A stretch of 64,000 bases of DNA from Bacteroides salyersiae WAL 10018 = DSM 18765 = JCM 12988 (GTDB lineage Bacteria; Bacteroidota; Bacteroidia; Bacteroidales; Bacteroidaceae), in the NCBI RefSeq assembly GCF_000381365.1, contig NZ_KB905466.1:62001-126000 (forward strand), given 5' to 3'. Made by a program: the position numbers and the translations under genes. Below the pieces are notes generated by a model that searched no databases, was not told where the DNA came from, and worked only from the letters and a program-made list of their open reading frames with translations. This document shows, in pieces, positions 29,234 to 50,930 of the stretch. Numbering within the stretch: position 1 is the stretch's first letter; every line of letters begins with the position of its first letter.

Positions 29234-29902
29234 CTATTTACGAGCCTCAGCAATGTAACCCAATGCTTCAGCACATTTAGCTGTAACATAAGCCCAATCT
29301 TCAGCAGCGACTTTATCTTTCGGGAAGAGTTTAGACCCCATACCGACACAGAATACGCCAGCCTTAATCCAAGCTGTCAGGTTCTCCTTGGTCGGTTCCA
29401 CTCCACCTGTCACCATCAATTTAGACCATGCCATCGGAGCCATCAAACCTTTCACAAAATTAGGACCATACACATCTCCCGGGAATACCTTGCAAAGATC
29501 ACAACCTACTTCCTGTGCAAAACCTACTTCGGATACAGAACCGCATCCCGGAGTATAAGGAACCAAACGACGATTACAAACCTTTGCTATTTCCGGGTTA
29601 AACAACGGACCCACCACAAAATTAGCACCCAACTGAATGTAAAGGGCGGCAGTAGCCGGATCAACGATAGATCCGATACCCATAGCCATATCCGGGCACT
29701 CTTTGGCAGCAAATTTCACTATTTCGGCAAATACCTCCTGAGCAAAATCACCACGATTGGTAAATTCAAAAGCACGAACACCGCCGTCATAACAAGCTTT
29801 CACTACTTTCTTTGCCACTTCTGCATCTTTATGGTAGAATACAGGTACCATGCCGGTTGAACCTATTTTATCCAACACAGCTATTTTATCAAATTTTGCC
29901 AT
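29234..29902 (-). CDS. kdgA: KDPG/KHG aldolase
   Basis: This class I aldolase of 222 residues cleaves 2-keto-3-deoxy-6-phosphogluconate to pyruvate and glyceraldehyde-3-phosphate. The Schiff-base lysine is Lys138 in CKVFPG, and the proton-shuttle glutamate is Glu46 in FEFTNRG. It is cytoplasmic. It takes the product of the kdgK kinase, whose gene lies upstream on the same strand, with a four-helix-bundle gene between them. The operon probably starts at the kdgK promoter under LacI-type control. 'eda' is an equivalent gene name. Confidence 0.93.
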
Positions 29903-29912
29903 TTCTTTTATA

Positions 29913-29936
29913 TTTACGATTTAACAATTTACGATT
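29913..29936. repeat. Left arm of inverted repeat flanking the four-helix-bundle gene
   Basis: TTTACGATT occurs twice, at 29913-29921 and 29928-29936. The same motif is found inverted (AATCGTAAA) at 30353-30361 and 30375-30383, on the other side of the four-helix-bundle gene. Confidence 0.65.
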
Positions 29937-29970
29937 GAAATTTCTTTTAATTATATAAAAAACAATACGA

Positions 29971-30354
29971 TTAGACTTGTTTAATCTGATGAGCCTTCAA
30001 AGTAACAATTGAACTGACTATAATCTTATAGAGTTCATTAGCTTCTTGCAATAAGTCTTGCAACTTCTCTGCCTTTATCATACCACTATCCCTTATAATT
30101 TCCAACCAATGTATTGTTTCATCAAGTTCTTCTTCTACCATTTTCAGTTTATTTAAGAAATCCTTATCTGATTTACCTAAACAAGCCGCTCTATAATTAG
30201 CAGCAGGAGAAGTACCCGAGCGAACAATCTGCTTGGCAATAGCGTTTCCGGAAATCGTATTGGGCATACCATCTACCATCTTTATTATTCTCAACGAGAA
30301 CATCTTAAATCGTTTTTTCAAATCTTCAGCGTCCATCAATGAAAGTAATTCCAA
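29971..30354 (-). CDS. Four-helix-bundle protein (23S rRNA intervening-sequence type)
   Basis: This protein of 127 residues matches the pattern of the small all-helical family first seen in 23S rRNA intervening sequences and related to the Avd accessory protein of diversity-generating retroelements (family knowledge). Typical segments are 'MFSLRIIKMVDGMPN', 'AIAKQIVRSGTSPAANYRAA' and 'KLKMVEEELDETIHWLEII'. A second start (MDAEDLKKRF, 30336) is possible. The gene interrupts the kdgK-kdgA pair and is flanked on both sides by inverted TTTACGATT repeats, which suggests insertion as a unit. The function is unknown. Confidence 0.88.
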   Translation of the reverse strand: MELLSLMDAEDLKKRFKMFSLRIIKMVDGMPNTISGNAIAKQIVRSGTSPAANYRAACLGKSDKDFLNKLKMVEEELDETIHWLEIIRDSGMIKAEKLQDLLQEANELYKIIVSSIVTLKAHQIKQV

Positions 30355-30383
30355 TCGTAAATAGTAAATCGTCTAATCGTAAA
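30353..30383. repeat. Right arm of inverted repeat flanking the four-helix-bundle gene
   Basis: AATCGTAAA occurs at 30353-30361 and 30375-30383, with AAATCGT at 30366-30372 between them. It is the inverted partner of the repeats at 29913-29936. The right arm overlaps the 5' end of the four-helix-bundle frame and ends five bases before the kdgK stop. Confidence 0.65.
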
Positions 30384-30388
30384 TAAAT

Positions 30389-31414
30389 TTATCGTTGAAC
30401 ACGTCCGCTTGCATCTCCACCGGCCAGTGCTTCCACCTCTTCTACCGATACAAGATTGAAGTCACCATTGATTGTATGTTTCAGTGCAGAAGCAGCTACG
30501 GCAAATTCAAGAGCCTCGCCTTGATTCGGTTTTGTCATCAAACCGTGAATTATACCACCGGAGAATGAATCGCCCCCACCTACACGGTCAATGATCGGAT
30601 CGATATCATAACGTTTTGAAGTATAGAACTCCTGCCCGTTATAGATCATCGCCTTCCAGCCATTATGAGTAGCAGAGAAAGACTCACGCAAAGTAGAGAT
30701 TACATATTTAAATCCGAATTCTTTCATCATCTGCTGAAAAATACCTTTGTAGCCTTCAGCATCGGTATGACCTGCTTCAACATCAGCATCCGGTTTGAAT
30801 CCCAGACAAAGTTCTGCATCTTCCTCGTTACCAATACATACATCTACGTACTTCATCAACGGTTTCATGATAGACTGTGCTTTCTCCTTTGTCCACAGTT
30901 TCTTACGGAAGTTCAAGTCCACAGAAACAGTCACACCGTGACGTTTAGCAGCCTCGCAAGCCAAACGAGTCAGTTCAGCAGCTTTATCAGAAATAGCCGG
31001 AGTAATACCAGACCAGTGGAACCAGTCAGCACCTTCCATTATAGCGTCAAAATCAAAATCAGAAGCATCTGCTTCGGCAATAGAAGAGTGAGCGCGGTCA
31101 TAGATTACTTTGCTCGGACGCATAGAAGCTCCTGTTTCAAGATAATAGATACCTACGCGATCACCACCACGGGCTATAAAGTCTGTTTTAACACCATATT
31201 TGCGCAAAGCATTTACGGCAGACTGACCAATTTCGTGTTTAGGCAATTTAGATACGAAGTATGCATCGTGACCATAATTTGCACAACTTACAGCAACGTT
31301 AGCTTCACCACCACCGTATACAACATCAAAAGAGTCAGATTGAACAAAACGGGTATTACCCGGAGTTGATAATCTAAGCATGATTTCGCCTAACGTAACG
31401 ACTTTCTTTCCCAT
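30389..31414 (-). CDS. kdgK: 2-keto-3-deoxygluconate kinase, PfkB family
   Basis: This sugar kinase of 341 residues phosphorylates 2-keto-3-deoxygluconate to KDPG in the cytoplasm. Its N-terminal GGGEANVAVSCANYG segment and the catalytic GGGDSFSGG motif (Asp282) are PfkB hallmarks. It is the first gene of the minus-strand kdgK / four-helix-bundle / kdgA group. Its promoter lies at 31558-31587 and overlaps a palindromic operator, so it is likely repressed by the divergent LacI-type protein. Confidence 0.9.
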   Translation of the reverse strand: MGKKVVTLGEIMLRLSTPGNTRFVQSDSFDVVYGGGEANVAVSCANYGHDAYFVSKLPKHEIGQSAVNALRKYGVKTDFIARGGDRVGIYYLETGASMRPSKVIYDRAHSSIAEADASDFDFDAIMEGADWFHWSGITPAISDKAAELTRLACEAAKRHGVTVSVDLNFRKKLWTKEKAQSIMKPLMKYVDVCIGNEEDAELCLGFKPDADVEAGHTDAEGYKGIFQQMMKEFGFKYVISTLRESFSATHNGWKAMIYNGQEFYTSKRYDIDPIIDRVGGGDSFSGGIIHGLMTKPNQGEALEFAVAASALKHTINGDFNLVSVEEVEALAGGDASGRVQR

Positions 31415-32802: not shown

Positions 32803-32834
32803 AAGGATTTACGATTATAAATAAAAAGGACATC

Positions 32835-49743: not shown

Positions 49744-50930
49744 TATTCCAAAATCTTATTTTTGTGCAACACATATTTATAGAAATCATATATGGCAGAC
49801 ACATATTGTTCTTCAGAATACAGATGAGCAACTGTATCTTGCGCCGCCTTTATCATAGGAAAATATGTTACGACCCCATTCTCCATTATCTGATTAAACA
49901 GCGATGCCAATTCATTTATAGAAGAAAATCTTAAACCGATCTCTCTTTGAGAAAAAAGCAGACCATTATCAAATTGCTCTTTAGTACCCGCCGTATTTCT
50001 TCCAATCACTAAACACCCTGCAAACATAGCCTCTGCTGTTACGCGACCAAAAGCCTCCGCTTTGGAAGCAACTACCAGTGCAAGAGCTTTATGCATTAGA
50101 GTTTTCACTTTATCAGATGCAACACCTCCCATAAAAATAATTACGCTTTCCAATCCAGATAAGATCACTTTATTTTGCAACTCATCATGTAGTTTACCAT
50201 CGCCTACAACAATAAGTTTACATGTATTTGTATTGGCATATTTTCTCTGTTTGCAAAATAAAATATATGCATCAATAATATCATGTATCCCTTTAGCTTC
50301 ATCCAATAAGCCCACATAAAGAAAATAGTTCTCTTTAGATTCTTCAAAATGCAAATCCTCTGATCGGGCAATTCCATTATAAATAATCCGATTGTTATCA
50401 GTTTTTTTTATATAGTCAGCTATATCTTTGGTTATTGAAATTGAATAACTTTTACTAATTGCCCGATTTAACCATTTTCTTGAAGGTATAGGTTTTAGCC
50501 CATAGTCTTTCTCCAAGTATTCACGAACATGCCAGATATGAGGTATTTTTAGATTACGTGCTACAAAATATCCATATGGAATTGCTGATGTATTCGTATG
50601 AATAATATCAGGGGAATATTGTTTTGCAAGCTTTCTTATTTTCCATGTCGAAACTATATATCCTCTGATAATATGTAGCCATCTGGGAAAATATAACAAT
50701 TTATTCAGAACAGAATTCAACCTCGGATAAGACGCCATCCGATAGTATATCGTTTCGTGCCGAACCCCCAATATATCCAATTCATGGTATAACAATTTAT
50801 GTTCTATTGGAGATACGACCAAAACCTCAACTTTCTTACTGATAATACCATTTAATAAAGACAATAAAGATTTACTACTACCACTAATAAATGATTCGGG
50901 AGAGTAGGCCGTTAGTATAAGTATCTTCAT
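49743..50930 (-). CDS. GT4-family glycosyltransferase
   Basis: This protein of 395 residues has a GT-B fold. The N-terminal part has 'ILTAYSPESFISGSSKSLLS' and 'PDIIHTNTSAIPYGYFVARN'; the C-terminal part has 'YFLYVGLLDEAKGIHDIIDA' and 'SKAEAFGRVTAEAMFAG', the usual EX7E-type nucleotide-sugar site. It overlaps the polymerase gene by four bases. It acts at the inner face of the membrane. Confidence 0.88.
   Translation of the reverse strand: MKILILTAYSPESFISGSSKSLLSLLNGIISKKVEVLVVSPIEHKLLYHELDILGVRHETIYYRMASYPRLNSVLNKLLYFPRWLHIIRGYIVSTWKIRKLAKQYSPDIIHTNTSAIPYGYFVARNLKIPHIWHVREYLEKDYGLKPIPSRKWLNRAISKSYSISITKDIADYIKKTDNNRIIYNGIARSEDLHFEESKENYFLYVGLLDEAKGIHDIIDAYILFCKQRKYANTNTCKLIVVGDGKLHDELQNKVILSGLESVIIFMGGVASDKVKTLMHKALALVVASKAEAFGRVTAEAMFAGCLVIGRNTAGTKEQFDNGLLFSQREIGLRFSSINELASLFNQIMENGVVTYFPMIKAAQDTVAHLYSEEQYVSAIYDFYKYVLHKNKILE

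What the first reader, a model, noticed from the sequence alone, without database searches (positions are those of the whole stretch)
29913..30383. Four-helix-bundle gene with inverted flanking repeats splits the kdgK-kdgA pair
The gene is bounded by TTTACGATT copies on one side and AATCGTAAA copies on the other. A solitary TTTACGATT also lies in the lacI-uxaA gap (32808-32816). This suggests a small inserted cassette of the rRNA intervening-sequence/Avd-like family, carried by an operon without breaking it.
Basis: partly seen in the sequence, partly recalled or inferred. Interest (0 to 1): 0.6.

Follow-up and report, generated by a model that had tools for sequence, protein, structure and literature searches.

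The report
Mobile S23 cassettes with private repeats
A small four-helix-bundle gene wrapped in short inverted repeats has slipped between two sugar-metabolism genes of a Bacteroides, and it belongs to a large, apparently undescribed group of jumping cassettes that settle between operon genes and seem to seed the genome with gene-less copies of their own repeats.

Summary
Between kdgK and kdgA lies a 121-aa S23/23S-rRNA-IVP gene (29971-30336, minus strand) inside 45-bp inverted arms of TTTACGATT-like units. Of 44 evaluable kdgK-kdgA gaps in the genus, 6 hold the gene, 2 hold both arms around a mostly deleted gene, 1 holds one arm, and 35 hold neither.

The arms are not a local oddity. All five S23 genes of this genome sit between co-directional genes, each inside its own, different set of short-unit inverted repeats. 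Across 113 S23 loci the two arms of a locus match beyond all permutations, though their sequence differs between loci. Near-identical S23 genes with similar arms occur at unrelated gene pairs, so gene and arms move as one unit. A 400-kb sample of this genome holds S23-less pairs of all five repeat types. The same layout appears on 7 of 10 plasmid loci, six of them cyanobacterial, and in outline in the published Coxiella rRNA intervening sequence.

Best reading: a mobile element organised like REPIN-RAYT, with an S23 four-helix bundle in place of a transposase. Mobility of the unit is well supported; that S23 drives it is inferred. Ten full-text searches found no report of it.

The parts
29971..30336 (-). 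S23 / 23S-rRNA-IVP four-helix-bundle gene, 121 aa, ATG start (the TTG at 30354 gives 127 aa but lies in the arm)
   Evidence: PF05635 and TIGR02436; start Met invariant in all 29 aligned sequences; AlphaFold model pLDDT 91.9, closest solved structures 2RLD, then 2GSC and Avd 4DWL
30342..30386 (.). 5' arm (kdgK side): units TTTACGATT-AGACGATT-TACTATT-TACGATT plus GGAATTACTTT in the sense of the gene
   Evidence: inverted match to the other arm, score 24, 5,000 shuffles max 22
29903..29947 (.). 3' arm (kdgA side): GAAATTTCAATCGTAAATTGTTAAATCGTAAAT in the sense of the gene, ending next to the kdgA start codon
30389..31414 (-). kdgK (PfkB family kinase), upstream operon gene; its stop codon is 30389-30391
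   Evidence: PF00294
29234..29902 (-). kdgA (KDPG/KHG aldolase), downstream operon gene
   Evidence: PF01081
32808..32816 (+). single TTTACGATT unit in the lacI-uxaA gap, exactly 5 nt after the lacI-type stop codon; possible decayed remnant, not significant alone
   Evidence: sequence; spacing as

Best explanation
This is one copy of a mobile cassette: a single gene for an S23-type four-helix-bundle protein between two inverted arms made of short (about 7-8 nt) units. SHOWN: it occupies the space between a stop codon and the next start codon, in the sense direction; gene and arms occur together at unrelated operon gaps; arm sequence follows the S23 lineage; the window genome also holds S23-less paired copies of its cassette arm types, and in two genomes the dispersed arms resemble their own cassette more often than the other's. 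INFERRED: S23 is translated from the host operon mRNA (no promoter of its own was tested for); an S23 oligomer (a homologue is a pentamer) binds the arms, probably as single-stranded or cruciform nucleic acid, and helps copy or insert any sequence carrying matching arms, using a host enzyme because S23 has no known catalytic site; internal deletion yields the miniature copies. In outline it works like a REPIN-RAYT system with S23 in place of the RAYT transposase.
For: Empty, occupied and deleted states at one site. All 5 S23 genes of the genome lie inside inverted repeats of different sequence. Over 113 loci own-arm score sum 3050 v permuted mean 1900, sd 48, max 2106; 104 of 113 exceed the best of 114 background windows. 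S23 at least 85% identical at different sites in 36 locus pairs (32 loci); between different sites arm similarity follows S23 identity, Spearman 0.65 v max 0.23 of 500 permutations, 95 loci. Both neighbours co-directional in 113 of 113 v 76 of 149 gene triplets of this genome. Dispersed arms of G000 fit the G000 cassette better than the G032 cassette in 21 of 23; in G032, own better 23, other better 14, ties 5. S23-less pairs of all five types in a 400-kb sample, typed by eye. TTTACGATT excess higher in genomes with this S23 type: median ratio 4.0 (n=7) v 1.5 (n=50), P=1e-4, not corrected for phylogeny. Y1 transposase in 1 of 10 genomes; RT in 7 of 10. Same layout on 7 of 10 plasmid loci, six cyanobacterial and one Chloroflexota.
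Against: No catalytic motif is known in S23 (recalled), and nothing here shows it moves DNA. No target-site duplication could be defined. Some genomes without this S23 type still have a TTTACGATT excess (e.g. G022, 130 v 29); G044 has the S23 but a ratio of only 2.4 and one matching pair in 400 kb. G000 has an extra repeat type (AGTGATTAGTGATAA) with no S23 found, though B. nordii has an S23 in that type. An 8-mer count for two other G000 cassettes did not show genome specificity: one not enriched (312 v 451 reversed), the other enriched alike in G000 (502 v 181) and in G032, where no such cassette was found (189 v 85). In G032 the own-versus-other preference is modest (23 v 14). Phylum-wide 13 of 27 loci exceed all background windows, and 3 of 10 plasmid loci do not exceed shuffles. 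One plasmid locus (L354) has an oppositely directed upstream neighbour. Only two S23-free genomes were sampled. At the kdg site arm similarity tracks S23 (0.36) little better than KdgA (0.31) or KdgK (0.24).
Confidence: 0.6

Rival explanations
1. Messenger-RNA intervening sequence: the arms pair in the operon transcript and RNase III cuts the S23 segment out, as in 23S rRNA IVSs; the arms are kept for that RNA stem.
For: In Coxiella the S23 ORF lies in the loop of a 28-bp terminal inverted repeat cut by RNase III, with heptameric repeats upstream (PMC4990558, passages read). All 113 evaluable cassettes are in sense orientation.
Against: A selected RNA stem should favour G-U over A-C mismatches; in 51 non-redundant loci the counts are 57 v 55, and in the 80 redundant loci 99 v 144. 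The dispersed S23-less copies are not explained.
Confidence: 0.17
2. S23 is a passenger or helper: cassettes and miniature copies are moved by another enzyme such as a reverse transcriptase or IS200-type transposase.
For: S23 shares the fold of Avd, an RT partner. RT-family matches occur in 7 of 10 genomes tested.
Against: No RT-family match in G025 (91% complete, 5 S23 genes) or G038 (79% complete, 1 S23); Y1 transposase in 1 of 10. Other transposase families were not searched. One shared enzyme does not readily explain why each S23 lineage has its own arms.
Confidence: 0.17
3. Landing pad: the repeats are host intergenic elements and S23 genes merely inserted between arms already there.
For: S23-less arm pairs exist in many gaps, and arms outlast the gene in G047 and G057. 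At one intergenic site G000 and B. nordii carry arm pairs of different type.
Against: 35 of 44 kdg gaps have neither gene nor matching arms. Similar arms accompany near-identical S23 at unrelated sites.
Confidence: 0.05
4. Ordinary conserved operon gene with a role in pectin/uronate metabolism.
For: 27 of 114 S23 loci share this gene pair.
Against: 43 different gene-pair sites as counted; no intact gene in 38 of 44 kdg gaps; KdgK 98-100% identical while S23 is 64% in several pairs.
Confidence: 0.01

Closest known systems
23S rRNA intervening sequences with an S23 ORF (Coxiella, Leptospira)
   Same: S23-family protein, ORF enclosed by terminal inverted repeats; heptameric repeats beside the ORF in Coxiella (PMC4990558, passages)
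   Different: Those lie inside 23S rRNA genes and are cut out by RNase III; here the cassette lies between protein genes of operons, arms show no RNA-pairing signature, and dispersed S23-less copies of the arms exist
REPIN-RAYT systems (REP-associated tyrosine transposases)
   Same: Gene flanked by the same short repeats that are dispersed as inverted pairs between genes; a gene type per repeat type (REPIN details recalled; papers seen only in the search listing)
   Different: The gene is an S23 four-helix bundle, not a Y1 HUH transposase; Y1 was found in 1 of 10 genomes
Diversity-generating retroelement Avd
   Same: Same fold: Avd 4DWL and Avd-containing 8UB7 follow 2RLD and 2GSC among the solved matches, at probability 1.00 but E-values of 0.04 and above; homology noted in PMC10053308 (passages)
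   Different: No reverse transcriptase was recognised among the flanking-gene termini listed, and TR/VR repeats were not looked for
MITEs of Bacteroidota, e.g. the Porphyromonas gingivalis minisatellite MITE (PMC4596501, search listing only)
   Same: Non-coding intergenic elements with inverted repeats
   Different: No link to an S23 gene is stated in the listing seen; unit length and sequence were not compared

Membership tests
S23 / 23S_rRNA_IVP protein family (PF05635, TIGR02436) | profile score above curated cut-off | tested here: met
   60.2 v 33.8 bits and 92.2 v 24 bits
S23 / 23S_rRNA_IVP protein family (PF05635, TIGR02436) | four-helix-bundle S23/Avd fold | tested here: met
   model pLDDT 91.9; query-normalised TM: 2RLD 0.76-0.79 (E 1e-5 to 6e-5), 2GSC 0.66-0.78 and Avd 4DWL 0.67-0.72 (E 0.003 to 0.12)
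rRNA intervening sequence | inserted in a 23S rRNA gene | tested here: not met
   lies between kdgK and kdgA
rRNA intervening sequence | S23 ORF enclosed by terminal inverted repeats | tested here: met
   general
rRNA intervening sequence | excised from the transcript by RNase III | not testable with these tools
   G-U v A-C counts of 57 v 55 give no support for a selected RNA stem
REPIN-RAYT | gene flanked by repeats that also occur dispersed as inverted pairs | tested here: met
REPIN-RAYT | gene encodes a Y1 tyrosine transposase | tested here: not met
   the gene matches the S23 family only; Y1 in 1 of 10 genomes
Insertion sequence / transposon | occurs at different sites as a unit with defined ends | tested here: met
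   near-identical cassettes at kdgK-kdgA, grpE-dnaJ, rfbC-rfbD and other sites; movement itself was not watched
Insertion sequence / transposon | encodes a DDE, serine, tyrosine or HUH transposase | tested here: not met
   S23 is the only frame of 80 aa or more in the gap
Insertion sequence / transposon | target-site duplication | tested here: inconclusive
   gap sequences diverge too fast to define the target
Diversity-generating retroelement | adjacent RT with TR/VR repeats | tested here: inconclusive
   the listed N- and C-termini of flanking genes show no RT by eye; no RT search of the loci, and no TR/VR search, was run

The most novel reading that the evidence does not exclude
A widespread class of mobile elements whose only protein is a non-catalytic S23 four-helix bundle. 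Each S23 lineage reads a private code of 7-8-nt inverted units, lives between operon genes in sense orientation, and maintains a private population of S23-less miniature copies. rRNA intervening sequences, operon cassettes in Bacteroidota, and cassettes in defence operons of cyanobacterial and Chloroflexota plasmids are all forms of it, and Avd is a relative recruited by retroelements.
Probability: 0.45. Interest if true: 0.9.

Novelty: new variant of a known kind. Interest (0 to 1): 0.78.

Why it matters
S23 proteins have had solved structures since 2006-2007, but PMC4990558 (2016, passages) states that no function was known. A shared layout, a nucleic-acid partner for each protein, and evidence of movement give a concrete function to test. 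It could also explain a large class of intergenic repeats in Bacteroides-type genomes and supply a likely origin for rRNA intervening sequences and Avd. Five S23 genes matching five repeat types in one genome make specificity directly testable.

Tried and rejected
Conserved operon gene: rejected by empty sites. Chance repeats: rejected. RNA stem in the sense transcript: first pass on 80 redundant loci gave 99 G-U v 144 A-C, the non-redundant set 57 v 55; not supported. IS200/RAYT as mover: Y1 in 1 of 10 genomes. RT as obligatory partner: no match in 3 of 10 genomes, two of them with S23, one of those only 79% complete. Pre-existing landing pads: disfavoured.

Attempts that gave little: 8-mer counting for the other four cassette types. 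Two gave no shared core because my start calls cut the arms; one was not enriched (312 v 451 reversed); one was enriched alike in G000 and G032. Alignment of G000 with B. nordii stretches gave 9 length differences and no clean fresh insertion of a complete cassette; one showed an AGTAGTTAAG array only in G000, one showed different arm types at the same site. Searching phage records for this protein gave 2 weak matches, not followed. Ten literature searches found no report of S23 genes in repeat-flanked operon cassettes. Searches returned no papers. The library is open-access only, and of its hits I read passages of four papers, so absence there is weak evidence.

Rows dropped or duplicated: L156 (contig end) left out of most tests; one search kept 95 loci (L156, L171 and loci with arm regions under 25 nt dropped); L338 and L345 (clipped) left out. 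The 113 loci include at least two genomes fetched twice (L036 and L145, L108 and L148; 100% identical pairs) and some near-identical MAG pairs. The 43 sites rest on reading frames; a few may merge (e.g. L076 and L089 share the upstream gene). Six of 50 fetched kdgA loci had no adjacent kdgK match, and five of 55 KdgA places were not fetched. The 400-kb G000 sample was partly chosen around known repeat clusters and S23 genes; density was computed on 220 kb (C1:1-200000, which contains the window, plus one stretch). Repeat types were assigned by eye. Two rows were runs of N. Ten of the 12 listed plasmid hits, out of 26 records, were fetched.

Full report
WHAT IS THERE. On the minus strand, kdgK (30389-31414) and kdgA (29234-29902) are separated by 486 bp. 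The gap holds a 121-aa gene (29971-30336) flanked by 45-bp arms, 30342-30386 and 29903-29947, that match as an inverted repeat (score 24; 5,000 shuffles max 22). The arms are built from units such as TTTACGATT, (A)GACGATT and TTTACTATT. The protein is S23/23S-rRNA-IVP. Its model is a four-helix bundle (pLDDT 91.9) closest to 2RLD (BT_0352; E 1e-5), then to 2GSC and, with E 0.04 or worse but probability 1.00, to the DGR Avd protein 4DWL.

OCCUPIED, EMPTY AND DELETED SITES. Among 60 genomes of the genus, 53 have a KdgA match, at 55 places. I read 50 places; 44 have a kdgK match next to kdgA, in some only a 53-55% identical PfkB kinase. Six carry the S23 gene (G000, G044, G038, G042, G032, G049). 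Two (G047, G057) keep both arms around a gene that has lost most of its length. One (G054) keeps a single arm. One (G045) holds a different inverted repeat, CACAGAGGACGCAGAG. The other 34 have neither the gene nor matching arms, in gaps of 16 to 176 bp, although several (L115, L116, L118, L119, L121, L143) contain short stretches resembling other repeat types (by eye).

THE ASSOCIATION IS GENERAL. The genome has five PF05635 genes. Each lies between closely spaced co-directional frames and is enclosed by its own repeats: TTTACGATT here; TTTAGTAGTTAAGTAG; AGTTGAAAGTTGAGAG; TTATGATTGATGAATTATGA; ATATGCCAATGTGCC. A scan of GTDB genomes gave 80 named loci, the best 80 of 513, and the genus gave 30 loci (one of them the window gene). 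With the other four genes of this genome that makes 114, of which 113 could be judged on both sides; all 113 have co-directional flanking frames within 260 bp. The rate for gene triplets of this genome is 76 of 149 (frames of 100 aa there, 80 aa, so the tests are not strictly equal). The 114 loci fall at 43 gene-pair sites as counted.

THE TWO ARMS COVARY. In the 80 named loci the summed arm match is 2279 against a permuted mean of 1627 (max of 10,000 permutations 1805). In 33 genus loci, where the repeats differ most, it is 825 against 430 (max 557); in all 113 it is 3050 against 1900 (max 2106); 104 of 113 exceed the best of 114 background windows from the same loci. So each cassette has two matching arms, and the matching sequence changes from cassette to cassette. 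A selected RNA stem in the mRNA should leave more G-U than A-C mismatches; the counts are 57 and 55 in 51 non-redundant loci and 99 and 144 in the 80 redundant ones. Pairing in the sense transcript is therefore not shown to be what keeps the arms alike.

CASSETTES MOVE. S23 proteins at least 85% identical occur at different gene pairs in 36 locus pairs, 32 loci, e.g. L044 (kdgK-kdgA), L049 (grpE-dnaJ) and L051/L053 (rfbC-rfbD; gene names read by me from the flanking protein termini). In an alignment of nine related loci at five sites the DNA matches from a few bases after the upstream stop codon to a few bases before the downstream start codon, which marks the ends. Between different sites, arm similarity follows S23 identity (Spearman 0.65; max of 500 permutations 0.23; 95 loci). 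At the kdg site S23 does not track its neighbours: L044 and L074 have KdgK 100%, KdgA 97% and S23 64%, whereas L044 and L070 have S23 98% and KdgA 93%.

S23-LESS COPIES. TTTACGATT occurs 214 times in the genome against 46 for the reversed control, often as inverted pairs without a gene between them. A motif-free search of a 400-kb sample, partly chosen around known clusters, found S23-less pairs of all five cassette types plus one further type, AGTGATTAGTGATAA (types assigned by eye). In G032, with one PF05635 gene above the cut-off and one weak match below it, the same search gave 19 rows: the cassette itself, 7 pairs of the TTTACGATT type, 4 of a CCTGTAGAGACGCACG type, 2 other short-unit pairs and 5 unrelated ones; none was of the other four G000 types. 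Periodic pairs numbered 4 in 220 kb of G000, 4 in 359 kb of G032, 3 in 400 kb of G044 (two of another type), 0 in 400 kb of G026 and 1 in 400 kb of G040, the last two genomes having no PF05635 match; inverted repeats of any kind were similar in number (16, 23, 19, 20, 21). Dispersed arms resemble the cassette of their own genome: 21 of 23 in G000; in G032, 23 own, 14 other, 5 ties. Genomes with this S23 type have a higher TTTACGATT excess (median 4.0, n=7, v 1.5, n=50, three genomes with remnants left out; P=1e-4, same with them counted as absent; not corrected for phylogeny). G032 is extreme, 574 v 10; but G022 reaches 130 v 29 without this S23. An 8-mer count for two of the other cassette types did not show genome specificity.

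THE NICHE. Of 70 TTTACGATT arm clusters in the G000 and G032 stretches (cassette arms included), 13 begin exactly 5 nt after the stop codon of a frame of 100 aa or more (21 within 15 nt; control 9-mers 0 of 28 in G000 and 3 of 15 in G032), and 16 lie within 15 nt of an ATG of such a frame, 8 of them at exactly 7 nt. That is the same stop-to-start niche as the cassettes.

OTHER LINEAGES. In 27 loci from 61 genomes across Bacteroidota the arm match is 504 v a permuted mean of 296 (max 384), with 13 of 27 above all background windows. Of ten plasmid loci (seven from four cyanobacterial genera, two from one Chloroflexota species, one Bernardetia), 7 exceed the best of 300 shuffles; arms in a Nostoc and a Dolichospermum are identical heptamer arrays. 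In 9 of 10 both annotated neighbours are co-directional; in L354 the upstream one is not. Several lie inside DISARM, restriction-modification or DUF1156-HEPN operons. In Coxiella the rRNA intervening sequence has an S23 ORF in a 28-bp terminal inverted repeat, with heptameric repeats before the start codon (PMC4990558, passages read).

MECHANISM. Shown: a unit with defined ends at many operon gaps, lineage-specific arms, S23-less relatives. Inferred: expression from the host operon, arm binding by an S23 oligomer (the Xanthomonas homologue is a pentamer, PMC4990558), and copying by a host enzyme. IS200-type transposases are nearly absent (1 of 10 genomes); reverse transcriptases are common but were not found in all (7 of 10); other enzyme families were not searched. 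The organisation is that of REPIN-RAYT systems (recalled) with a different protein; it is not a member of that family because the transposase is missing, and it is not an rRNA intervening sequence by location.

LIMITS. Flanking genes of non-plasmid loci are reading frames, not annotations. Some loci are duplicates or near-duplicates. Five genomes were sampled for density. No biochemistry exists here. The species of the window was not identified; its nearest named relative at this locus is B. nordii (89-90% S23 identity). B. nordii has an S23 gene at the adk-obgE site with near-identical arms and one at kdg; its other two S23 genes lie next to different genes, and no further PF05635 match was found in it.

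Noticed in passing
L346, L347, L348, L350, L351, L353 (plasmids of Planktothrix, Chlorohelix, Gloeocapsa, Dolichospermum): S23 genes sit inside operons with defence-type or helicase genes (DISARM drmD - S23 - MmeI; DUF1156 - S23 - Swt1 HEPN; helicase - S23 - methylase); five of these six have inverted short-unit arrays above shuffles.
   Followed up: partly
G032:C24:71354-74013: A weak PF05635 match (28.8 bits) lies about 1.6 kb from a reverse-transcriptase match: probably a diversity-generating retroelement with its Avd.
   Followed up: no
L177 (G045, kdgK-kdgA gap); L261:11845, L264:16143 (G044): Another paired inverted repeat, CACAGAGGACGCAGAGGACACAGAG, without an S23 gene, once in the same kdgK-kdgA gap.
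   Followed up: no
L215, L226, L229, L230 (G032): Intergenic CCTGTAGAGACGCACGGC inverted pairs, and in the same genome an AACCAACGGTCGACGAAGTC repeat joined to TTTACGATT arms: further repeat families of unknown driver.
   Followed up: no
G000 C1 about 49874-49988 v G060 C106: The same intergenic site carries an inverted pair in both species, but of different repeat type (ATTATGATTTAT v AATTAAAAATTAAAG), as if arms were swapped in concert.
   Followed up: no
L068, L071, L057: The upstream frame's last codons and stop (TTTACAATTTGA or TTTACAATATGA) look like part of the repeat array, so an insertion may have rewritten a protein C-terminus.
   Followed up: no
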